Origin: Gigantopelta aegis
Taxonomy: Eukaryota; Mollusca; Gastropoda; Neomphalida; Peltospiridae
Length of the DNA stretch: 64,000 bases
Assembly (NCBI RefSeq): GCF_016097555.1
Contig: NC_054712.1
Coordinates: 37,752,454 to 37,816,453 of the forward strand
Direction: 5' to 3'
Part shown: piece by piece, positions 1,894-63,228 of the stretch
Numbering within the stretch: position 1 is the stretch's first letter
Layout: every line of letters begins with the position of its first letter
Position numbers and translations under genes: made by a program
Notes under the pieces: generated by a model
Told to the model about the DNA's origin: nothing
The model's database searches: none
What the model saw: the letters and a program-made list of their open reading frames with translations, nothing else

Positions 1894-2117
1894 GTGGGTG
1901 TTATACACAGCCGTGTGTTTGCTTTCCAATTAACCTTTAGACTACTGGATTAATTTTTAACAAAAACCACGTTGAGTGGGTACAAGTTTATAATTTTTAC
2001 TCACATATATTCACTTAAATGTTTCATAAATACATGAAATAAAGTTCATATATGAATCAGTAAGTATTATTTTCGTGTCTTTTTTTTGTAATTTTTATTA
2101 TTTTAGATCGGCTAATG

Positions 2118-5100
2118 CAGGCCTGGAAATAATTATTTGGACCGTGCCTGTCAAGCTGTCCTATATCAGTCAGTTTGTGCCTGTCACAAATTAAAATGTA
2201 CCTGTCACCAAATTGCATGCCAGTGTGTAAATATCGAAAGCAATTATTACAAATTTTAGAATGTTATTTATCTTTTATTAATCCTGTAATATTAATAAAT
2301 GCATGAAATTATAGTATGACTGATAAATTACTTATATGGTCATTGTTATTGTATTCAGATCAACAACTGCCAATATCACTTTGGTAAGAAACCTTCAAAT
2401 CTTAAGCAGCCACTGTTGTCAGAATCAGATAAGAAACAATGTTGTCAGCATAACTTTGACTTGTATCTGATTTCGGTTTCTAGTTTCTAGTTTATGATAT
2501 CGTTCATGTTATATATCCGTAGGCAGGAAACCTTCAAATGTTGAACTGTCACTACTGTCAGATAAACAGAATACATTTTCATTATCACTAAAACTTTCAC
2601 TTGTGTCACCAGACTCCGAATCAGATCCACTAATCTCCTTTCTTTCAGTTTCTAGTTTCTGGTATTTTACTTTTGGGGGTCTCTTTTTGTACATTTGCCT
2701 TTTCTTCTGATTTGGTCTCCTCCTTTTCACCTGGTTCCACAGATGAACTACAGGGCTTACATCAAATGATCCCAGTGGGGGACCTTCCTCAACAATTCGT
2801 AGGATATTTGTTAACCTGTCCTCACCTAAAGAACACCTGCTATGACTCTTTGTTCTTTTTAAGCGAGAAAACATTCTCTCAAGTTTTGCATTACAAACTG
2901 GTACAGAAAACAAAGTTCAATGAAAGTCAGTATATTCTTCCACTTAGTGGACTTAGAGCAGTTAAACAAAATTTTCCAGGTTTTTTTGTAACAACTTTTA
3001 TGTGGCTGTAAAAAGTCCAGTGTGTACCTGACCATGTCGTGCCATTCCTCTAGAATATTTTGAGGAGAGGCATCTGGAGAAAATCCTTGTTTCAGCAATA
3101 CAGGCTGAAAGTTCTCTATCAGTTCAGTAACATTGACATCCGTAAAGTCTACACCTGCCACATCAACATTTGATTTCCAGTGTTCAGTGTTTAATATAGT
3201 GGCAACATTATTCAGCTGTATACTGCTGGCACCCTTTAGTCTGGAATCCATGGCACGGTGTACAGCATTTATAATGGTATTCTTTGCTGATTTTACATCT
3301 TCAGTGGCCTTCAGAAAACTTGTTTTAGTGAATTCTATCCCCTGATAAGTGTACACTGAATCAGTCTTTTGTAACTTTCCAAACAGAAATTTAACAGCAG
3401 GAAGATCCTCAAAAGACCTAGTTAACAATTGATCAAGAGATTCTTCAGAACACTTGATATTATGTAGAACTCCAACACTGTCAATAACATCTTCTTGAAA
3501 TGCTTTGGACAATATAGCTGCTGGGTTCAGGACATCAATAAAGAATGCAACATACAAAAGCATGCGACTAGAATTCCACTCACACAGATAACCACATATC
3601 TTTTTATGATCTTTACATTTTTTGTCACCAGCTAAGTGCTGTAGATGTTGCATGTAAACACCATATTTATCCAGGACCATCCGCAGTGCTGACAACTTGA
3701 AAGAAATCCACCTTGTACCACAAGCACGTTTTGGTTTCAGAGAGCCCTCTTCAAATTCAAATGTATCTTTGACTAAATTGTGCAAAGTTTTCAGTTCCTG
3801 TAGTTTTTTGGGAGATTTATGGTAAAGGTAATACAACCTCAGCAGCATATTGTCCACCTTTTGAAATACGGTAGTATTTAAGGCATCTTTCAGGGCCAAT
3901 TCTAATTTGTGAGCCACACACCATGTATATATTAGCCATGGTGCTTTTTGTTCCAGAAGTGCTTTTACTCCACTTTTATTACCACTGTTGACTGATGCAC
4001 CATCAGCACCAAAACCAATAAGCTTTGAATAAGTTCACTTGGCATGATACCCAGTGAGTGAAAACTCTCCTCAATTGCACCAAGTATTCCAGGTGCATCT
4101 CCCTTTTTTGACATCTTTTAGGTAAAGAAATGAAAGCTTCACTTCAATTTCATCATTTTAGAATAAGGATCAAAATACAGTACATATACAACTTCCTTTT
4201 CTGTAACAGACTTGTCTGTGCTCCCATCAGTTAAAACACTATAGAATTTGGCTTTTGAAAGATCATCATGCAGCTTTGATGCTATAAACTGTCCATGAAT
4301 GTCCACAAATTCTGCACATTGTTTACGGTTAGTGTAAGCTTGAACACCTATATCTACACCATGGTAAGTTTCCAGTTTAATCAAATCTTCATACACAGAG
4401 AATGGGAGCTCTTTTTTGGCAATAAAATATGCTATTTCAAATTTTTTTATTTGTTGAAGTTCTTGTACTTTAGTCATACTACAAAAGCTGTCACCAAGCG
4501 TTTGTTGTTGGGGGTCTGGTTCAAATACATTGTGAAGATGTTCAACACATTCACCCCTAGCGTTCATGTCCTTGACGTAAAGTTTGTATGCATGTTTATG
4601 GTAGTTTGTTGAAGAATGGTCTCTAGCATTTGATAAGCGCATGTTTGTAGACCCTCTTATCCAAACGTCAGTGAAATCTCTACTACACCGTATCTCTTTC
4701 TCAAACTGTGTGCAGACGACACACCTCATTACGGTCACCTCACCTTTAGAATTTGTTTCGTGTTTTAACCAAACGGATGCATTAGTTTTTACCAAGTCGT
4801 CATTTATCCATTTTTGCAACGTTGTTGATCGTAGAGTTCTAACCTGCTTCTTTGTAATGCTGGTAATTTGTGGGGATGAATCTGATGTTTCGCTACCGAC
4901 ATTAGTATCACACATACTACTACTTGTACTTGCTACACTTGTAGTTTTATCCAAAAAAGATGTTATCTTTTTCGACATTCTAAATTCTTTACCTTTACGG
5001 ACACCACGTGATATCCGTTGTGCATGCACGGGCGATGACGTCACTATATTCTCGGTTTCACGTTTTATTGTTATTATTTTTAAATATATATTGACCCGTA

Positions 5101-6048
5101 TAAAGTATAAGACGTGTTCTGTTGATTTGTTATTTTATGTTATTTACTGACATAATTAACTTCGCTCGGGGGGGGGGGGGGGGGGGGGGGCAAAAATTTC
5201 GTGCTGTCGGCTATTCGGGTCACTCGGAACACATTTGCCGATTAACGACTTTCTGATCGGACCCGCGTTCCGTATAAGCAGCGTAAGTGCAGCAGACATA
5301 TTTCGCGAGACGCGATTTCTGCCAATTCGTCAAGGAAATAAAAGTTATAAATTTTTTAGTAGTACGTTTGGGTGTTTTCTTCCTTGTATTTAAATATGTT
5401 TGCGTGCAGATCTATTCGTTGTGCATAGTTGAGCAGAAATGCGTAGCGTTCACAGTGGGTTTTTTGGTGTGCAACGCGGCCCCGCTCTATTAATAGACAC
5501 CAGCTGTAGTAATCGGTTGAGGTGTCTCTTCCCCCAAAATAATATTAATAATGACCGATGTGTGACCGTTCCGTTTTAGAGGTACAATAACATTCCATTA
5601 AATAATTATAATCGGAATCAATTAATTGTCAGTTAATTTTAAAGGTAAACTTTAGTGTTAAAAGACGCTTATAATTATCACGCCGTTTGTGTCAACCATT
5701 GAACCAATGATTCGCCGAGGTGAGGTCATTAGGCGTGTCTATTAATAGACAAAAACAATTTGTGTGTTGTTTTTTCTCGTGGAAAACGTAAATGCCTTCT
5801 CGTTTGTATTTAGTTACCATAAAAACTAATGTAAGCTTCGTGCACGTGCACACTAGTCGGAAAATATTCAAAATATGCCTCTCTTTTTTTTCTCAAAATA
5901 TAGAGAAATCGGCTAAGACAAAATAAAAATAGCAGTTTTTGTGCCGGACAAGATGACCGCTAATATTAAATACGCGACTGTCAAATCGTGACAAATCACA
6001 AATACGTACCGGACAATGACCGTGACCGGACACTTATTTCCAGGCTTG
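2118..6048 (-). mobile_element. hAT DNA transposon, decayed autonomous copy
   Basis: The ends are CAGGCCTGGAAATAAT at 2118 and its imperfect inverse ending at 6048 (ATTTCCAGGCTTG), with 12 of the first 13 bases inverted-matching. TAATG directly abuts both ends (2113-2117 and 6049-6053), a 5-bp target duplication. Inside, on the minus strand, is a broken hAT transposase (2509-5044). About 1 kb of non-coding sequence with a G homopolymer at about 5168-5190 follows. It sits antisense in an intron of the left-hand gene. Confidence 0.88.
2509..5044 (-). pseudogene. hAT transposase (ZNF862/DUF4371-like group), frame-disrupted
   Basis: The reading begins at an ATG at 5044. The first segment (5044-4139, 301 codons) holds a Cys-containing N-terminal zinc-finger-like region (RCVVCTQFEKEIRCSRDF) and the start of the catalytic core (FYSVLTDGSTDKS). 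A second segment (about 3917-2859) continues with WCVAHKLELALKDA, typical of the hAT RNase H-like core. The third (2913-2509) is the C-terminal dimerisation region (CNAKLERMFSRLKRTKSHSR). The bridging stretch 3918-4138 contains FGADGASVNSG in yet another frame, so there are at least three frame changes and the copy should be inactive. It is a plain DNA transposon gene, not a host gene. Confidence 0.88.
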
Positions 6049-41500: not shown

Positions 41501-44500
41501 AAATTAAACACAAATAAAATTTCTAAACTTGGCTAGTACAGATTATGATTGTTACTTCACGAGGATATATAAAAATCACAAATAAAGTAGAAACAACTGA
41601 CATTTGGATTTTTAGAAATAAATAAAACACTAATAAATTTTTAAACGTGACTTGTAAAGATTATGACTTTAACAGGTTATGACTGTTACTTCTCGAGGAA
41701 ATTAATAACAGACATATAAAATAAAGAATTTAAAGTTAATAATTGAGATCTACAAAACCAACACCATGGAAACAAATGTCACAATATAAAATTTCATTTT
41801 GCTGTAAGTTGTAAATAAAGTATGGTGTTTGATTTTTTTATCAAAAGAATTTAATGCAAAGAATTTCTTATTTTGTACCAGTTGAGAAAGTAAAGTTTGT
41901 TTTTATTTAACGACGCCACTAGAGCACATTGATTTTTTATCTTATCATCGGCTATTGGACGTCAAACATATGGTCATTTTGACACTGTTTTGAAGAGGAA
42001 ACCCGCTGTCGCCACATAGGCTACTCTTTTTTCGACAGGCAGCAAGGGATCTTTTATTTGCGCTTCCCACAGGCAGGATAGCACAAACCATGGCCTTTGT
42101 TGAACCAGTTATGGATCACTGGTCGGTGCAAGTGGTTTACACCTACCCATTGAGCCTTGCGGAGCACTCACTCAGGGTTTGGAGTCGGTATCTGGATTAA
42201 AAATTCCATGCCTCGACTGGGATTCGAACCCAGTACCTACCAGCCTGTAGACCGATGGCCTACCACGACGCCACCGAGGCCGGTATACCAGTTGAGAAAA
42301 TATATGAACTAAACAAATTATTCATCTCATCAATACAAAGAATCTCTCAAATCAGATCATGATGCTGAGAATACAGTAAAGTTTAAAACAATTCAATTCT
42401 AAACTTTTCACTATGTTTTCCAAAATATGTACCTGTTGTATAGATGGTCAATGCTTACATTTATCAGCTACTAAGGCTTCTTAAAAGTACAAAATATAAA
42501 TGATATCGAAATATACGAAGCTTCTGACAGAAATATGGGAATAATAAAGGTAAATCTCTAAGAAAGAAATTTATGGGGGAAATGGAATAAGAAAAAGAGT
42601 AAATTCAAAATTAATTTCTGTTTCACTGCGGTGTACCTTCATCTCTGGAAGAAGTTCATGACTTGGAGTAGAGGGGGTGGAGGCAACAGATGGAATAGTC
42701 AGACTGTCAGCAGTTCCATTCATGGGCAGCATTCCCTTCTTGTCCTCGTAAAATGCTTTCAGCGGCACATAGTTCCCAGGAATCTCCAACTGATGTCTGG
42801 AAACAGAGATAACATAACAACTAGTTTTGAATTCAAAACAATGTCGGCATAATTATTGAAGCAGAACAAACTTCATAATTGTTTTATTTAATTAACAAAA
42901 ATAGAGGTGAAATGAAGGCTTTTAAAAATATATCTACATAGTATAGTGTAAACAATAATGATAATGGTATTTTAAGATGTACGTGTATTATTTCTATATT
43001 CATGTTTTAATCAAATATTTTATGATACCCCACCAGACCTGTCAACCCTCCCAGATTTCGCGGGAGTCTCCCGCTATTTGATCAAATCTCCCCCAAACTT
43101 GTGCAGGAGACAATTTCTCCTGTTAAATGACCATGTGTCAAAATTACCAAATGTATGAAATCCAATAGACTATGGTTGATTAACCAATGTGCTCTAGTGC
43201 TCAAAAGAAAGGTGAAAACAATAAAAAAAATTATCTATGAAAGTGACAACTAGGTAACATGTACTTTCTGCACACATTTTCATTTTTTTCAACTTATTTT
43301 CGTGCTTATATCCAATTAAGGTTCAAGCACACTGTCCTGGGCACACACCTCAGCTATCTAGGCTGTCTGTCCAGGACAGTGGGTTAGTTGTTAGTGGTGA
43401 GTGGTTAGTGAGAGAGAAGAGGGTGTAGTGGCCTTACACCTACCCACTGGGAACCCTGTACCTACCAGCCTTATGTTCGATGGCTCAACCACAATGCCAC
43501 AGAGGCCGGTATTGAGAGTCGTTAAAACTCGCTCTGGGTGGGAGCTGGTACCAGGCTGCAAACCCTGTACCTACCAGCCTTATGTCCAATGGCTTAACCA
43601 CGATGCTACCACCGAGGCCGGTTCTGCACACAAATCTGGGTAAAGTAAAGTTAGCTGCGCACCTGACTTGTGTTTCTAGGAAGAGCATGTGTCTGTAGAG
43701 GGAGGTGTACGACGTCGACAGGATCCCGACAGACTTCATGCGCGCTCCTCGCTCGATCTCACTCTCCACCTTCATGTTCTCAAAACACGCCAGGCCGAAC
43801 ACACCGTCCTTCTTGAAGTATCTGCAGAGGGGTAGGAAGAAAGGAAGGAAATGGTTTATTTAACAACGCACTCAACACATTTTATTTACGGTTATACAGG
43901 CCCCTCCATGCGAGGTGAGCAGAGCCTCGCACTTGCCTCATACTCACCTAAAACTTAAAACTGGCGAGCAGTTTATTGCTCGCCTCAATCGTTTTGCTAT
44001 AGGCTATTGCTGAAAAAAGTCATGACTTGGAGACTTGTTTCAAATTGTAAACCCATTAAGGCAATATCCTAAAAACAGCCGTTTCGTTCTTTAACACTAA
44101 ACTATCACTGCAAAAGAATGCATAAACGTTGGTAACGGGTTATTATTATTATTAGCATTACTTACTGCCTCTACATCATGTCCACCAGTGAAAGATTTAG
44201 AAAATACCTCTTGAAAAATAACCCTAGTTTTAAAAATCAAAACGGTTTGGACACAAATAATTAGTTATTCAACCACTGAATATATTTCAATATGTGAGTT
44301 GGGTAATCTGTCAACTGTTTCAAATTATTAAATAGAAACATTTTGCATGCTTGCGTGAGAAATCTGTTTTCAATATGGGTACATTTTCATCATACACCGG
44401 TGGACGTTAGATCGTAGCTGAAAGGGGTTTCCGGTCTTTTGCCGAGATGGCGAAAGGAAAATTTGTAGAACTATCAACCTGATACATTCTAAATAAAGCT

Positions 44501-50171: not shown

Positions 50172-50293
50172 TTTCAATGTTTATATTATAATATTTTTAT
50201 TTGGACTTTAAACGCAAAAGAGTGCTTTCTCAACACAATCTGTCGTCTGTACCACAAAAACGATAAAATTAAGCTCCATGTTAATACGTCTCT

Positions 50294-50294
<1 letters not shown>

Positions 50295-50306
<12 letters not shown>
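50295..50306 (+). promoter_or_regulatory. Pol III A box of tRNA-Asn
   Basis: TGGCGCAATCGG fits the TRGYNNARNNG consensus, at the expected D-arm position. Confidence 0.9.
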
Positions 50307-50339
<33 letters not shown>

Positions 50340-50344
<5 letters not shown>

Positions 50345-50350
50345 GAGCCC
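50340..50350 (+). promoter_or_regulatory. Pol III B box of tRNA-Asn
   Basis: GGTTCGAGCCC is an exact B box (GGTTCGANNCC), 34 bp after the A box. Confidence 0.95.
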
Positions 50351-50365
50351 ACCCAGGGACGTTCA

Positions 50366-56982: not shown

Positions 56983-59900
56983 ATATATGTTAGTTTTTTA
57001 AAGCTCTATCTCCATCTTTAGGTGACATATCCAATTATTACTATTAATTAGTAAAATTGTATTAACTTAAAGTAAAGTAGGGCTAGTGAAATTTTAATCA
57101 TGGCAAGTAATTATTTTTAAATCACTGATTCCCATGGCTAGTGGATTTTATAAAAATTGTAGAAGCCCTGCTTGGATGTACTATTTTGCGTTATATCGGT
57201 GCACCACTTGGTAAACCTGAACATCTGAAATACTTACCGCTTGTTTAGCTTTCATCAGCTTGAAACGATCGAAGTCTGTCATGGCAGCCTTCTGCAAAAA
57301 ATAAATTGGATGCAAATTAAGAAATAGCTTACAAGTATCACCAGAGTAGAAAATATCACTTACCTTTTATCCTAGTTCCTAGTTGAGTTTACAAACACAA
57401 CGTTGGGTACCTGTAAACAGGGGTGCAGAAAGTACTCGCTAACTTGCCAAATGCAAGTAAAAGTTCTCATGGACAGTTGAAAAATGCAACTATCAGTCCA
57501 ACTGGCAATCTGTCTTTTTCTGACCGACGGTATTTTGTTTCATTATATAAATTTTGAAATAATGTAAATCTATATGTATGAAAGAACTGTAAAAAAAACC
57601 CCGTCTTTATTAGAATATTTCAAAATATATATATATATATCATTTGATGCGAAGACTGCATATTATTATTGAACATTAATATATTGTTCTATAAGCTGGT
57701 GGACTAGTATACATAAATTCGGGCAGGCTAGTAAATTTTAGTTGGTTCTAGTCCAGCAGGCTAGTGAAATATTTTTCATTTCTGTACCCCAGTGTACAAT
57801 TTAAAAGATGCTAGTCCCCCAGGCCAGTTACATTCCAATGTGATTACTACATGGTTTTTTGTTCAATATCGATCATAAGTTAAAGTCAGTTTTTTAAAGA
57901 TACCACTATAGCACATTGATTTATTGGATGTCAATAACCTACTCACAGGTTGTGGCCATATCTCAGATCATAAACTGTCAGCAGTAATAATCTGACGGCA
58001 ATTCCTATCATGAAAGGTTCATCATTAATATGGCCGCTATGTTACTTAAAATCAACTCGGGTTATAGCCCAGTGATGCGTGGTGGTCGGTCTAGGAGTGA
58101 TCCTCGTCATGGGCCCATTTAGCTATTTCTCCTTCCAGCCAGTGCACCGTCACCGCTATATTAAAGGCTGTGATATACATGTGTGCTATCCTGTATGTGG
58201 TATGGGTGCATACAAAAAGATCCCTTGCTATTAATGACAAAATGTAGCGGGTTTGCTCTTTAAGTAAAGTAGTGTTTCTTTTATTTAACGACGCCTCTAG
58301 AGCACGCTGATTTTTATCTTATCATCGGACATCAAACATATGGTCATTATGGCATATTTCTTTAGAGGAAACCCGCTGCCACCACATAGGATACTCTTTC
58401 CGATAAGCAGCAAGGGATCTTTTATATGCACTTTCCCAGACAGGACAGCACATACCACATACTTTAATGAATCAGTTGTGGACCACTGGTTGGAACGGTT
58501 GCTCTTTAAGATTATACGTGAAAATTACCAAATGTTTGACATCCAATAGCCGATGATTAATAAATCATTGTCCTCTACTGGTGTAGTTAAACAAAATAAC
58601 CTTTAAAAATCCCTTGGGTTAAAGGAAATTTCCCTTAATTTGTAGCCCATATGACATATTTACTCATATCTTGCTGTTAAAATAAACAAAAACCATCCAG
58701 TCTTTTTTTTTTCTCTGTTTCAATGCACACCATTGATGACAACACTATATCCCCCCCCCCCCCCCCCCCCACCACACACACACACCTTCAAAGTGTCAAG
58801 CCTAAGTATGGTTTTCCATGACCACCCTACATTCTGGAATGTTTAACCCACTCACAGATTATGGCCATATTTCAGATTTTAAAATTGTCAGCAGTAATAA
58901 TATGACGGCAATTCCTATCATGAAAGGTTCATCATTAATATGGCCGCTATGTTACTTACAATCGATGGTCATGGGCCCAATGGGCTATTTCTCGTTCCAG
59001 CCAGTGCACCATGATTACTATATTAAAGGCTGCGATATATATATACATGTGTGCTATCATGTGCACACAAAAAATCACTTGTTACTAGTGGTGGGAATTG
59101 GGTTGGATTTTCATGTTTGTTATGGCAGACAAAGCACTTTGGGGGCACTTTTGACAATTTTCAGGGCACTTTTTTTGCATTAAAGACAAAAACAACAATT
59201 GAAATGAACATAAATATAATTAATGTTCTTGCTTTAATAAATGAATGGCAAAATATATTTATAACGGATATTTTTATTAATTAATAATATATTTTTTTAG
59301 TGTTTTATCAAGGCAATTTTAGAATTAATTATTGAAAAAGGCTCGTTTAATCTCAGGGCAGCATGGTGCTGATTAAGGCATGATGGTGCTAGACTATTGA
59401 GGCATGGTGCTGCACCATGCTAAAATAAGCTAGGGAAAACACTATTGATTGGTTAGTTGAACCAACCAACCGACCATCAGTTATAATCAGTTGTTGACAT
59501 TTTAAACCTTTTTTTTTTTTTACTAGACGTTAAAAATATTTAAGTTTGTTTGATTACTGACAGCGTATTGTTACTCGGGATATCTAATGGATACAAAAAA
59601 TAAGAATAAAAGTACTATACTATATATGTAAAATTGTCAATTTTATTTTTTATCCGAAAATAAACTTTCTTTTCAAGTTTTCAAAGAACTTCTTGTTCTT
59701 TTTTTTTTCTCTTTCTTTTTTAAAATCATCATGTTCACATGCTCAGGCGAAAGTTGCGACCTTTTCTTGCCGACGAGGTTTCAGCCATGCTGAAAACTCA
59801 ATCAATAAATAGTATTGAGGAAACACACGGATCTCGCAAGTTGAAAACAGAACGCTCAATTACCCAACTCGACTTTATCCTTCGTTAAATAAATATAAAA

Positions 59901-62900
59901 TAAATTAGCACAAAATTTATTTAAATAAATTTATTGTAGGGTATAATGTAATGCAAAATGGTAACGCCTCATAAACATTATTATTTCACAGATCAATTCA
60001 CAAATAATACAGAGTTGAAATTTGTAGTTGATGTTTTTATAGATACTATTCGGGTCATTTCAACAATTTCCATAGCATAAAGTACATATATGTTTGGTTA
60101 TATCAATTACCAGAAATTGTAATCGATTAGTCAGAATTTAGATTCCACCAACCAATCTTTGATTATTCCAATTAATCGTATCCTCACTACTTGTTACTAA
60201 TGATAAAATGTAGTGGGTTCCTCTTTAAGACTATACATCAAAATTATTAAATATCTGACATCCAATAGCTGATAATTAATAAATCCATGTGCTCTAGTGG
60301 TGTCATTAAACAAAACAAACCAACTTTTAACAAGTCCCCTGTGTCAAAGGAAATTTTCATTAATTTGTATTAACGATGTATTCATTCTTATCTTGCTTTA
60401 AAAAACCCATAAAACATTCAGTCTTATTTGTTTTCTCCACATCGGTTGATAGCACTATTTATTACCCATATGGGCTCAAATATACGGGGTAATATTTTTT
60501 CGATCTCTGCACAGTGTGCAGATTGCTTCTATAGTCACTGATTGGCTGGCTTTAAAAAGACAAGATTTGATTGGCAATTACATACTGCATTTGTCAAACT
60601 ATTACTACGAACTTCAAATATTTTTTTACGATACGAACATTTACGGATTTAAAAATCAAAATATATGTACAACTGTTTAAAAAAAAAATTTTTTTATTAT
60701 TTTGACTGGTTTTTTTGGGAACTATTCTTTGGTGGATACTGTTGGGTGTGCACCGGTAACGGCGCATATGAATATATTGTTATGGCTGGTAGAGCTTGTT
60801 AGTTGTTACAGCAGCGAGGAGAAAGTAAATATACTTTTAAAATCGTTAAAGATTGACAATGGGTAATAAAGAGAATAACCAACTCACTACGAGGAATTAC
60901 GGATTATCTGTCCCTCGTGAATTAATGCTGTAAAACCCTCGCCAGAGGCTCGGGTTTACAACATTAATTCACTCGGGACAGATAATCCGTAATATCTCGT
61001 AGCTCGTTAGTTATTCTCTAAATATTCCCTCCCCCACCACCATCAGCGTGTAAAATCTCAGTATGATTTTTTATGACCACCCTAGGTCCAGGAATGTTTA
61101 ATCCAACATTACCACCTACATGAATTATGGCCACATTTCAGATTTAAAATAATTATCAGCAGTAATAATCTGACGGCAATTCCTATCATGAAAGGGTTCA
61201 TCATTAATATGGCCGCTGTCACTTATAATCAACTTGGAACCTCCTATGGAGCAACAGCAAGCTGTGTATGGATACAATGTCTGGTAGAAGATTGTTAAAA
61301 GTCTGTTTTTGTTTAACACCGCTAGAGCACATATATTTATTAATCGTCAGCTACTGGGTGTCAAACATTTTGTAATTTTGACATACAGTCTTAGAAAGGA
61401 AACCCGCTACATTTTTTCATTAGTAGCAAGGAATCTTTTGTATGCACCATCCCAAACAGGAATGCACATACCACAGCCTTTGACCAGTTGTGGTGTACTG
61501 GTTGGAACAAGAAAAAAATTAAATAAACAAGCTTGTTTAAAAAAAGAAAAGAAAAAAAGTTGATTTGTTCAACACCACCACTAGAGCACATTGATCTTTT
61601 ATTAATCATCGGCTATTGGATGTCAAACATATGGTCATTTTGACAGTCAGAGAGAGGAAACCCGCTACATTTTCCCATTAGTAGCAAGGAATCTTTTATA
61701 TGCACCATCCCACAGACAGGAAAGCACATACCACAGTCTTTGACCAGTTGTAGTGTACTGGTTGGAACGAGAGAAAAAATAAAAAAATAAAAAATAAACA
61801 AGCTTGTTAAAAAGCTGTTTGGATTAGAGCTGCCTTGTACAGATATGAGAGCTGGAATAGGTTTGGTTTTGTGTTGATTTATTAATCATCAGCTATTGGA
61901 TGTTTAAAAACATTTTAATATTCTGACTTCAGGGGAAAACCACTCCATTTTCCCCATTTATTTAGCAGCATAGGATCTTTTATATCACACCCAAATTCAC
62001 CAGGGGTAATTAAGTGCACTACTATGCATATCAAGATGTATATATTTACATTGTAAGCCATATCTCAGATTAAGAATTATCAACAGCAGTGGTCTGACGG
62101 CAATTCCTATCATGAAAGGTTCATCATTAATATGGCTAACAAGCTAATACCAGGAGTTGGAAATTGGTGAACTGTAAAAAAAAAGAGAGGAAATTTAGAG
62201 AGGTCCCGGAAATTCTTGAAATCCTAGGTTAAAATCTGTGCCATCCAACACATTTTGGAGGAAAGGACAATTAAAATGCGAGGAAACGCAATGTTCCATG
62301 AGAGGAAAACAGCTGATCCGAGGAGAATTACCATCCCTGTTATATGCACTTTCCCACAGACAGGATAGCACAAACCACTGCCTTTTATATACCAGCCATG
62401 GAGTATTGGCTGTAACGAGAAATAGCCCAATGGGCCCACCGACAGGGATCGATCCCAAACCGATGGCGCATCAGGCGAGCACTTTACCACTGGACTACAT
62501 CCCGACCCTACTGTGATGTAAAGCCAGGGCTAGCACTGGAAAGATATTTTGCTTAGCCATTTTTAACATATGTAGAATGAATGAATGAATGTTTAACGAC
62601 ATCCCAGCACAAAAATAACAGATCGGCTATTGGGGGTCAAATACGTTAAATACATCAAGATAATTTTCATTTAAAATAAATACACACACACAATTATTTC
62701 CTTAAAAAAAAATTCTGAAGTAGCTAATTTAAAGAAAATTTTATTAGCCAAATACTAAATGTTGTAGCCACATTGTATGAAAATCAGGGGCCTAGCTTGG
62801 ATTTTCAGGTGGTATGCAGACTTTTTCAGTGATGGAATAAAACAGAGCATACACGCATTTTACATCATATATTTTAATAATAAATACAAATATTTATTAT

Positions 62901-63228
62901 CTGAGGTGGTACGCAGCTGCGTACTTGCATATATGGAAGCTAGGCCCCTGAAAATTAACAAAAGGCTAATTTGGCAATAAGCCGGGCGAGCCCTGAAAGC
63001 TGGCAAGTCGTGTTATTATACAAGCAGCCAAACCTTGTTTTTGTTTTCTATCTTCTTGGCCCATGTGGTCTGCGCCCACTTCTCACTGATCTGGTTCTTG
63101 TCCCAGGCTTTCTTCACGGTCCTCGTGCGTGACCCTGGCCCAAGTCTCAGTGTGAACTGGGTCAGGTGCAGAGCCTTGAAGTTGATGTCTTTACGGTGCA
63201 CGTTAGTGCATGGTCCATCTACAAGAGC
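54884..63228 (-). CDS. RPL14: 60S ribosomal protein L14 (eL14), C-terminal three exons
   Basis: Exons 63228-63034, 57291-57238 and 55081-54884 join in phase 0 to give 148 residues. The first exon is ALVDGPCTNVHRKDINFKAL and KWAQTTWAKKIENKNK; the second is KAAMTDFDRFKLMKAKQA; the third is RNRMINIEYGKLRK, then a Lys-rich tail. These are the conserved core and basic C terminus of eukaryotic eL14, a large-subunit protein. The N-terminal KOW-like part (about 35 residues) is not in the window, so the gene continues past 64000. The intron 57292-63033 hosts four box C/D snoRNA-like units. The tail has a 9-residue tandem repeat (KSAKPEKSQ). Confidence 0.95.
54902..54982 (-). repeat. RPL14: 27-bp coding tandem repeat in the RPL14 tail
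   Basis: Three in-frame units coding KSAKPEKSQ, KSAKPEKSQ and KSKKQEKSE. Tail length variation of eL14 is known between animals (alanine repeats in mammals). Confidence 0.9.
55760..56119. mobile_element. TTAA-flanked MITE, AGGGACAGACC family
   Basis: AGGGACATACTCTAGTTTTT and GAAACTAGGATCTGTCCCT terminate it, with TTAA on both sides (55756-55759, 56120-56123). It lies in the last RPL14 intron. Confidence 0.8.
56315..56500. mobile_element. MITE fragment, CAGGGTTTCTGCC family, T-run expanded
   Basis: CAGGGTTTCTGCCAGAGGG and GGTATGGCGCCATACCC match the left end at 27959. A T homopolymer (56361-56386) is inserted. The right end is missing. Confidence 0.65.
56630..57170. mobile_element. hAT-like MITE, CAGGGCTTCTA family, with internal triplication
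   Basis: CAGGGCTTCTAGATTATGG and AATTGTAGAAGCCCTG are the ends. CTTGGAT stands directly outside both (56623-56629, 57171-57177), a 7-bp match. The left end region is repeated in tandem three times (about 56634, 56719, 56815). A C homopolymer (about 56949-56982) lies inside. The right end lies 68 bp from the RPL14 exon at 57238. Confidence 0.78.
57238..57291 (-). CDS. RPL14: RPL14 internal exon
   Basis: Acceptor TTTTTGCAG|AAGGC, donor CAAGCG|GTAAGT (near-perfect). 18 codons, KAAMTDFDRFKLMKAKQA, strongly conserved with vertebrate eL14 (MTDFDRFKVMKAKK). Confidence 0.96.
57418..57792. mobile_element. hAT-like MITE, CAGGGGTG family
   Basis: CAGGGGTGCAGAAAGTACTC to TTTCTGTACCCCAG. Same family as 7036-7507, without its SINE insert. 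As at the left locus, it lies right beside a CAGGGCTTCTA element. Confidence 0.72.
57954..58035 (-). ncRNA. Box C/D snoRNA candidate, copy 1
   Basis: Oriented with its host RPL14. From the minus strand 5' end: stem GGCCATAT, box C ATGATGA (58025-58019), guide region ending GATAGGAATTGCCGT, D' CAGA (57994-57991), C' TGCTGA (57983-57978), box D CTGA (57966-57963), stem ATATGGCC. The stem is perfect over 8 bp. The guide pairs over 11 contiguous bases, two of them G-U, with GCGGUAAUUCC of 18S rRNA. The base 5 nt upstream of D' faces the U that is 2'-O-methylated in human (Um627, SNORD65) and yeast (Um578, snR77). The pairing is seen directly. The function is inferred. Confidence 0.8.
58058..58262 (+). 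mobile_element. SINE, tail lost
   Basis: CTCGGGTTATAGCCCAGTGA, CCAGCCAGTGCACCGTCACC and AAAAAGATCCCTTGCTATTA. It ends where a minus-strand SINE begins. Confidence 0.65.
58263..58510 (-). mobile_element. SINE, tail B, inserted in another SINE
   Basis: TAAAGTAGTGTTTCTTTTAT starts tail B on +, running through GCAGCAAGGGATCTTTTATA to TTGGAACGG. TTGCTCTTTAAG occurs on each side (58253, 58499), so this copy appears to have inserted into the SINE that starts at 58058, whose 3' end resumes at 58511. Confidence 0.7.
58511..58602 (+). mobile_element. 3' end of the interrupted SINE (tail B)
   Basis: AATTACCAAATGTTTGACAT, CGATGATTAATAAATCATTG and AAACAAAATAACCTTT: continuation of the SINE split by 58263-58510. 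Confidence 0.7.
58748..58792. repeat. C homopolymer with CA repeat
   Basis: About 20 C followed by CACACACACAC. Lies just left of snoRNA copy 2. Confidence 0.88.
58795..59080. repeat. Segment duplicated together with the snoRNA
   Basis: GACCACCCTACATTCTGGAATGTTTAA upstream of copy 2 (in pieces: GACCACCCTA, GGAATGTTTAA) recurs at 61074-61105 upstream of copy 3. The snoRNA copies therefore arose by duplication of larger intron segments. Confidence 0.65.
58863..58945 (-). ncRNA. Box C/D snoRNA candidate, copy 2
   Basis: Same architecture and perfect stem GGCCATAT/ATATGGCC. Box C ATGATGA, C' TGCTGA and D CTGA are kept, and the guide GGAATTGCCGT is unchanged. D' is CATA here rather than CAGA, which may weaken it. 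The D-proximal loop differs from copy 1. Confidence 0.72.
60185..60330 (+). mobile_element. SINE 3' end, tail B
   Basis: ACTAATGATAAAATGTAGTG, TCCAATAGCTGATAATTAAT and ATTAAACAAAACAAACCAAC. It resembles the 58220-58602 SINE, consistent with segment duplication. Confidence 0.68.
60871..61018. mobile_element. Palindromic MITE, ~65-bp arms
   Basis: GAGAATAACCAACTCACTAC opposes GTAGCTCGTTAGTTATTCTC. The arms continue through GGATTATCTGTCCC/GGGACAGATAATCC and AATTAATG/CATTAATT. A short AGAGGCTCGGG loop lies at the centre. Confidence 0.8.
61129..61214 (-). ncRNA. Box C/D snoRNA candidate, copy 3
   Basis: Stem GGCCATAT with ATGTGGCC (one G-U pair). Box C ATGATGA, guide GGAATTGCCGT, D' CAGA, C' TGCTGA and D CTGA are all present. 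One additional base after box C and a longer AT-rich loop before D make it 86 nt. Confidence 0.75.
61290..61535 (-). mobile_element. SINE, tail B, head truncated
   Basis: GTCTGTTTTTGTTTAACACC, CTAGAGCACATATATTTATT and GTAGCAAGGAATCTTTTGTA, ending GGTTGGAACAAG plus an A-rich run. Confidence 0.72.
61556..61795 (-). mobile_element. SINE, tail B, head truncated
   Basis: Nearly the same layout as the preceding copy, including the abrupt stop at GGTTGGAACGAGAGAAAAAA and AAACAAGCTTGTT after it. The two were probably duplicated in tandem rather than inserted separately. Confidence 0.75.
62056..62137 (-). ncRNA. Box C/D snoRNA candidate, copy 4
   Basis: The stem is AGCCATAT/ATATGGCT: both partners of the first pair changed relative to the other copies, so pairing is retained. 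Box C ATGATGA, guide GGAATTGCCGT, D' CAGA, C' TGTTGA, D CTGA. The most diverged copy overall, yet boxes and guide are intact. Confidence 0.78.
62335..62512 (-). mobile_element. SINE head and middle, tail lost
   Basis: CTGTTATATGCACTTTCCCA through CCGACAGGGATCGATCCCAA to the head GGGTCGGGATGTAGTCCAGT (minus). The B box GGGATCGATCCC is intact. Confidence 0.72.
62785..62950. mobile_element. hAT-like MITE, CAGGGGCCTAGCTT ends, exact 5-bp duplication
   Basis: CAGGGGCCTAGCTTGG and GGAAGCTAGGCCCCTG... the ends CAGGGGCCTAGCTT and AAGCTAGGCCCCTG are perfect inverses. AAAAT flanks both sides exactly (62780-62784, 62951-62955). The 166-bp element ends 83 bp from an RPL14 exon. Confidence 0.85.
63034..63228 (-). 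CDS. RPL14: RPL14 internal exon
   Basis: Acceptor TTTTTCACAG|GCTCT, donor AACAAG|GTTTGG. Exactly 65 codons, phase 0 at both ends. It contains ALVDGPC and KWAQTTWAKKIE, diagnostic for eL14. Confidence 0.96.

What the first reader, a model, noticed from the sequence alone, without database searches (positions are those of the whole stretch)
57954..62137. Four-copy intronic box C/D snoRNA family in RPL14
Four separate 82-86 nt units (57954-58035, 58863-58945, 61129-61214, 62056-62137) lie in one RPL14 intron, all in the host's orientation. Each has box C ATGATGA, a D'-like CAGA (CATA in copy 2), a C'-like TGCTGA or TGTTGA, box D CTGA and a terminal stem. Animal C/D snoRNAs are typically processed from introns of ribosomal protein genes, so position and orientation fit. 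I do not know of a snoRNA described in RPL14 of molluscs.
Basis: partly seen in the sequence, partly recalled or inferred. Interest (0 to 1): 0.88.

Follow-up and report, generated by a model that had tools for sequence, protein, structure and literature searches.

The report
SNORD49-like snoRNA copies in RPL14 introns
A ribosomal-protein gene of a large invertebrate (probably mollusc) genome carries, inside two neighbouring introns, seven copies of a small RNA that very probably directs one chemical mark on the ribosome, a known kind of RNA in an unusual number and place.

Summary
Four C/D-type units lie on the minus strand, in host orientation, in one RPL14 (eL14) intron. The family is larger than reported: the genome search found seven copies, four here and three in the preceding intron just beyond the window, and none elsewhere. 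In all seven the 17 nt upstream of box D' are invariant, while 20 of 29 other non-box loop columns vary. That fits a functional D'-guided methylation snoRNA. The guide's best rRNA site, in foreign rRNA and in this genome's own 28S, is the register of vertebrate SNORD49 (human 28S C4456, peptidyl-transferase region). Rfam SNORD49 has the lowest E-value for three of four copies but stays below its gathering score. Two mismatches lie beside the target, and exactly those two bases complete an 11-pair helix with the 18S site of snR77/SNORD65, so a two-target guide is possible; yet the genome has a separate 14-copy snR77-like array. I read this as an amplified SNORD49-type snoRNA in a new host: a new member of a known kind. 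Expression and methylation are untested.

The parts
57292..63033 (-). RPL14 (eL14) host intron, 5742 nt, GT..AG
   Evidence: splice ends and flanking exon translation
63034..63228 (-). RPL14 exon upstream of the intron (65 codons)
57238..57291 (-). RPL14 exon downstream of the intron (18 codons)
57954..58035 (-). copy 1, box C/D snoRNA, 82 nt
58863..58945 (-). copy 2, box C/D snoRNA, 83 nt, degenerate D' (CATA)
61129..61214 (-). copy 3, box C/D snoRNA, 86 nt
62056..62137 (-). copy 4, box C/D snoRNA, 82 nt; outer stem pair G-C changed to A-U
57995..58011 (-). copy 1 D' guide, 17 nt, invariant in the seven copies found
58905..58921 (-). copy 2 D' guide
61173..61189 (-). copy 3 D' guide
62097..62113 (-). 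copy 4 D' guide

Best explanation
A seven-copy family of intronic box C/D snoRNAs, released with the introns of RPL14 pre-mRNA and trimmed to their terminal stems (inferred). Each copy uses its D' guide to direct fibrillarin to 2'-O-methylate 28S rRNA at the cytidine equivalent to human C4456, as vertebrate SNORD49 does. The copies arose by duplication within the gene; the D guide is probably not used. Shown: anatomy, host, copy number, invariant guide, pairing with this genome's own 28S in the SNORD49 register. Inferred: expression, methylation, orthology with SNORD49.
For: Rfam: SNORD49 has the lowest E-value for copies 1, 3 and 4 (0.0058, 3.3e-4, 0.016; copies 1 and 4 searched alone 1.1e-4 and 2.9e-4). 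The best rRNA site of the guide is the 28S SNORD49 register in two foreign rRNAs and in this genome's own rDNA; predicted duplex -21.0 kcal/mol against -21.1 for the Rfam SNORD49 consensus guide, lengths 17 and 19 nt. Guide: 0 of 17 columns variable against 20 of 29 other non-box loop columns, p 1.9e-6; copy 1 against copy 4: box C through guide 33 of 33 identical, D' to D 18 of 28, p 1.5e-4. The invariant block ends where 28S pairing ends: copy 7 differs in the next base upstream. The only C/D-like units that a pattern of box C followed by TAGGAANNGCCG finds in the genome are these: 23 matches = 7 of this family, 15 of one dispersed repeat, 1 without a D' box.
Against: Rfam SNORD49 scores for the four window copies are 26.2, 22.1, 30.9 and 24.6 bits, under the gathering score of 37. 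For copy 2 snoR77Y (0.02) and sn3071 (0.024) have lower E-values than SNORD49 (0.073), and by bits other C/D families lead for copies 1, 2 and 4. Guide positions 6 and 7 are mismatched to 28S (SNORD49 consensus: only 6), which common guide rules disfavour (recalled). 10.8% of 3000 shuffled guides reach the same best score somewhere in 5111 nt of rRNA, so the site rests on register and conservation, not on the score. Copy 2's D region scores nearly as high (21.5) on an 18S stretch. No expression data.
Confidence: 0.66

Rival explanations
1. One D' guide with two targets: it methylates both the 28S cytidine (SNORD49 register) and the 18S uridine of the snR77/SNORD65 site, so the family merges two guides that vertebrates keep as separate snoRNAs of one host gene.
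For: Positions 6-7 (UU) mismatch 28S but complete an 11-pair helix with 18S (two of the pairs G.U) in foreign and own rRNA; predicted -17.5 kcal/mol on own 18S against -13.6 for the SNORD49 consensus; of the 16 dinucleotides at those positions only UU gives 18S pairing below -14 kcal/mol; UU is invariant in seven copies. SNORD49A, SNORD49B and SNORD65 share host SNHG29 (PMC13421336, passage read); chicken U49 and HBII-135 lie in introns 2 and 4 of one host mRNA (PMC2653536, table rows read).
Against: The 18S pairing has a G.U at the target nucleotide. The genome holds a separate 14-copy array with a canonical snR77-type guide, -18.9 kcal/mol on own 18S, so a second 18S guide is not needed. One substitution (G to U) separates the guide core from the SNORD49 consensus, so the 18S match could be chance.
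Confidence: 0.17
2. A C/D snoRNA whose real target is 18S only (SNORD65/snR77 type).
For: 11 contiguous pairs in the snR77 register; snoR77Y is the best Rfam match by bits for copies 1 and 2 and by E-value for copy 2.
Against: Guide positions 12-17, invariant in seven copies, pair fully with 28S and at most by two G.U with 18S; G instead of A opposite the 18S target uridine; a dedicated snR77-like array exists.
Confidence: 0.05
3. A C/D snoRNA with another target or a non-methylation role (orphan).
For: Tandem mismatches in the 28S duplex; no expression or methylation data; the score of the 28S site alone is within reach of shuffled guides.
Against: Best site in the rRNAs tested lies in the SNORD49 register. 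snRNAs, tRNAs and mRNAs were not scanned.
Confidence: 0.09
4. Decayed or retroposed snoRNA copies without function.
For: Copy 2 has a degenerate D' (CATA); copies 6 and 7 have imperfect stems; the intron is full of dispersed repeats.
Against: Invariant guide while most other loop columns vary; all seven copies in one gene in host orientation.
Confidence: 0.03

Closest known systems
SNORD49 / U49 (Rfam RF00277), 28S C4456
   Same: Box layout, D' CAGA, guide UAGGAA.UGCCGUCAGA, same 28S register; more than one copy in one intron (human SNORD49A and B in intron 2 of SNHG29: PMC11028025 and PMC9622897, passages read).
   Different: Below the Rfam gathering score; one more mismatch beside the target; guide pairs further upstream (AUGAUAGGAA); host is RPL14, seven copies.
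snR77 / snoR77Y / HBII-135 (SNORD65; human 18S U627 recalled)
   Same: Shares the GGAAUU.CCG guide core and can form 11 pairs with the 18S site.
   Different: G in place of A opposite the target; guide extension fits 28S, not 18S; this genome has a separate snR77-like array.
Plasmodium snoR28 (RF01604)
   Same: Consensus guide AGGAAGUGCCGUC, SNORD49-like.
   Different: Low score here (23.5-27.6 bits, gathering 63).
Drosophila RpL14 as a snoRNA host
   Same: Same host gene (PMC13228274, section 5 read).
   Different: Which snoRNA it hosts is not stated in the text read; homology unknown.

Membership tests
box C/D snoRNA | box C RUGAUGA and box D CUGA closed by a terminal stem | tested here: met
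   four of four window copies; copies 5-7 too, with one unpaired stem position in copy 6 and two in copy 7
box C/D snoRNA | D' and C' boxes | tested here: met
   CAGA in six of seven, CATA in copy 2; UGCUGA in four, UGUUGA in three
box C/D snoRNA | intronic, in host orientation | tested here: met
box C/D snoRNA | stable small RNA bound by fibrillarin, NOP56, NOP58 and 15.5K (recalled definition) | not testable with these tools
   no RNA data
SNORD49 | reaches the Rfam gathering score of 37 bits | tested here: not met
   22.1-30.9 bits for four of four window copies; the whole-genome run found none, but its 14 control genomes also rang in none, so it is uninformative
SNORD49 | D' guide pairs with 28S with its 5th base opposite the C4456 equivalent | tested here: inconclusive
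   register met in own 28S, but positions 6-7 mismatched
SNORD49 | guides Cm at that site | not testable with these tools
   no methylation data
snR77/SNORD65 | D' guide pairs with the 18S site with A opposite the target U (as in the snoR77Y consensus) | tested here: not met
   G opposite the U, wobble pair

The most novel reading that the evidence does not exclude
A single D' guide serves two methylation sites in two different rRNAs: the 28S site in the peptidyl-transferase region and the 18S snR77 site. It would be a living link between SNORD49 and SNORD65, which share one host gene in vertebrates and may descend from one ancestral guide.
Probability: 0.17. Interest if true: 0.6.

Novelty: new member of a known kind. 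Interest (0 to 1): 0.36.

Why it matters
It places a SNORD49-type guide in what is probably a mollusc, in a new host, with three and four copies per intron, against the mostly one-per-intron habit of animals (PMC11028025, passage). Side-by-side SNORD49-like and snR77-like families in one genome make the origin of two linked vertebrate guides testable. If the guide were two-target, one antisense element would tie together methylation of both ribosomal subunits.

Tried and rejected
Rfam at gathering threshold found only a tRNA-Asn in the window. Exact searches of viral contigs for two rRNA motifs and for the guide found nothing. A genome-wide Rfam SNORD49 search found nothing, but its controls also found nothing. 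A shared D guide was dropped: the D regions vary in 10 of 14 columns and have no rRNA site common to all copies, although copies 2 and 3 both score near 18S position 638 of the L044 stretch in registers one base apart, and copy 2 reaches 21.5 there. Reading the family as a dedicated 18S guide was set low when the snR77-like array was found. The mir-670 hit at 60900-60989 is an inverted repeat scoring 33.4 against a gathering score of 95. Whether the genome has further RPL14 copies is unknown: that search did not complete.

Limits: human U627, guide-pairing rules and the usual snoRNA-to-splice-site distance are recalled. The column test uses a 17-nt block whose borders I set from the 28S pairing after seeing the alignment, and the copies are related, so its p is only a guide. 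In one search the six copy pairs gave p from 7e-5 to 0.095; the flank comparison there also found similarity between the 5' flanks of copies 3 and 4 (score 54, highest shuffle 28), which I did not pursue, so 'copy 4 has unrelated flanks' is not claimed. Genome searches score only the best candidates and skip very common words, so 'none elsewhere' means none found. The own-rDNA contigs L044 and L045 look error-rich. The foreign rRNAs were partial for 28S.
Full report
WHAT IS THERE. The intron is 5742 nt with GT..AG ends. Every unit has box C ATGATGA, a D' box CAGA (CATA in copy 2), C' TGCTGA or TGTTGA, box D CTGA and a 9-bp terminal stem. A strict scan for that set found 3 of 4 and nothing else in 64 kb, against 0.025 per simulated window in 40 simulations; with G.U allowed in the stem, and D' not asked for, it found 4 of 4 and nothing else.

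THE FAMILY IS LARGER. When the genome search answered (1.149 Gb, 5216 contigs), it gave seven matches, all within 10.3 kb of one contig and all on the minus strand: the four in the window and three beyond its end. L013 (window coordinates 63001-73000) shows the preceding RPL14 exon at 68622-68723, so copies 5-7 (extended coordinates about 65230-65311, 66847-66929, 68157-68238) lie in the preceding intron, 63229-68621. Copies 4 and 5 are identical over the 81 nt compared although an exon lies between them. Copies 1-3 share flanks, so local duplication made at least these; copies 3 and 4 also show some similarity 5' of the unit (not pursued). Distances to the 3' splice site run from 662 to 4764 nt in this intron and 2001 to 4928 in the preceding one, far from the short distances usual for vertebrate C/D snoRNAs (recalled); the long terminal stem may compensate (inference).

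EVIDENCE FOR FUNCTION. In the seven-copy alignment the 17 nt upstream of D' vary in 0 of 17 columns, while spacer, D'-C' and D-guide columns vary in 20 of 29 (p 1.9e-6, borders chosen afterwards). Between copies 1 and 4, box C through the guide is 33 of 33 identical and D' to D 18 of 28 (p 1.5e-4; the six pairs range from 7e-5 to 0.095). The stem of the four window copies pairs in 36 of 36 cells, with one compensatory double change and two pairs varying between U-A and U.G; the shuffle control is weak (135 of 500 reach it), while slid versions pair in 33-47%. Copy 6 has one unpaired stem position and copy 7 two.

TARGET. Rfam gives no snoRNA hit over threshold. Below threshold SNORD49 has the lowest E-value for copies 1, 3 and 4, but for copy 2 snoR77Y and sn3071 are lower, and by bits snoR77Y leads for copies 1 and 2 and snoR38 for copy 4. 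I tested the guide against eukaryotic rRNA found as contamination in public contigs (28S partial) and against this genome's own rDNA contigs. In both, the best site is 28S TCGGCTCTTCCTATCAT, in the register of SNORD49, whose human target is C4456 in helix 90 of the peptidyl-transferase centre (PMC12288042, passages read). Pairing covers positions 2-5 and 8-17, with 6 and 7 mismatched. Nine places in the genome matched a 31-base probe of this stretch at up to two mismatches, and all nine keep the paired bases. Predicted energies: -21.0 on own 28S against -21.1 for the Rfam SNORD49 consensus. The score alone is not significant: 10.8% of 3000 shuffles reach it somewhere.

THE TWO-TARGET QUESTION. 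Positions 6-7 (UU) are wrong for 28S but right for the 18S site of snR77/HBII-135, where the guide forms 11 contiguous pairs including two G.U, one of them at the target (-17.5 kcal/mol). Among all 16 dinucleotides there, only UU does this. In vertebrates SNORD49 and SNORD65 share one host (PMC13421336 and PMC9622897, passages read; chicken table rows in PMC2653536). Against this, the genome holds a 14-copy array at C6:78537145-78550989 (copies with at most one mismatch in a 13-nt core) with a canonical snR77-type guide (snoR77Y 33.2-35.7 bits for four copies, below the gathering score of 52). No other unit with a SNORD49-type guide was found: AGGAAGTGCCG behind a C box matched 2 places, neither with a D' box, and the wider pattern gave 23, of which only the seven RPL14 copies qualify (of the 15 repeat matches I looked at 3). 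The snR77-type pattern gave 21 places, 10 of them in the C6 array; the other 11 showed no C/D layout on reading. So the RPL14 family is the best candidate for the 28S site, and double duty remains possible but unneeded.

WHAT IS KNOWN. RpL14 is named as a snoRNA host in Drosophila (PMC13228274, sections 5 and 6 and passages read); a Drosophila survey says introns of 27 cytoplasmic ribosomal-protein genes host snoRNAs (PMC2246290, passages read). Animals mostly follow one snoRNA per intron, yet human SNORD49B and SNORD49A share an intron (PMC11028025, passages read). C/D copies usually sit in different introns of one host (PMC8178906, passages of abstract and text read). Neurospora CD24 ties snR77, snoR77Y and HBII-135 to one 18S site (PMC2780460, passages read), while an Arabidopsis paper could not predict an rRNA target for its snR77 (PMC7464842, passages read). 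My paper searches joining snoRNA with mollusc, oyster, gastropod or RPL14 (20 of 317, 9 of 9 and 15 of 722 papers listed) showed no description of this family in the listings; most subscription papers are not held.

SPECIES. The eL14 exons match unnamed proteins at up to 65% identity over their full length, and Dreissena, a bryozoan and a hemichordate at 60-61%; other bivalves 55-59%, the snail Physella 57%. That fits a lophotrochozoan; 'mollusc' is plausible but not proven.

VERDICT. A real, very probably functional C/D snoRNA family, ordinary in mechanism, unusual in copy number and with an intriguing guide. New member of a known kind.

Noticed in passing
G000:C6:78537145-78550989 (L036, L037): 14 copies of a snR77/snoR77Y-like C/D snoRNA in about 14 kb, all on one strand, with an 18S guide and a second stretch before box D (AATCGAGCGGCATTTAATT in 10 of 14) for which no good site was found in the rRNA scanned; a few copies have changed boxes. 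Host not identified.
   Followed up: partly
L013:2230-2311, 3847-3929, 5157-5238: Copies 5-7 of the RPL14 family in the preceding RPL14 intron, outside the window.
   Followed up: yes
window 60870-61019: Inverted repeat with 68-nt arms, 85% complementary, 14 nt apart; sub-threshold mir-670 hit; may be a foldback element.
   Followed up: no
window 57292-63033: Many dispersed, partly inverted repeat copies; snoRNA copies 1 and 2 lie 910 nt apart and each has a similar repeat stretch nearby (58106-58180 and 58968-59042).
   Followed up: no
window 50288-50361: tRNA-Asn (GTT) gene, plus strand; ARAGORN also lists a tRNA of unclear anticodon at 42209-42280, minus, which Rfam does not.
   Followed up: no
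window 2509-5134, minus: Long open frames that look to me like a transposase (a guess); the frame at 4142-5134 has a C17orf113-type zinc finger (Pfam 2.7e-8), the frame at 2862-4034 no Pfam match.
   Followed up: no
G000:C5208 (L044), C416 (L045): rDNA on small contigs with apparent small insertions and deletions, as in an unpolished assembly.
   Followed up: no
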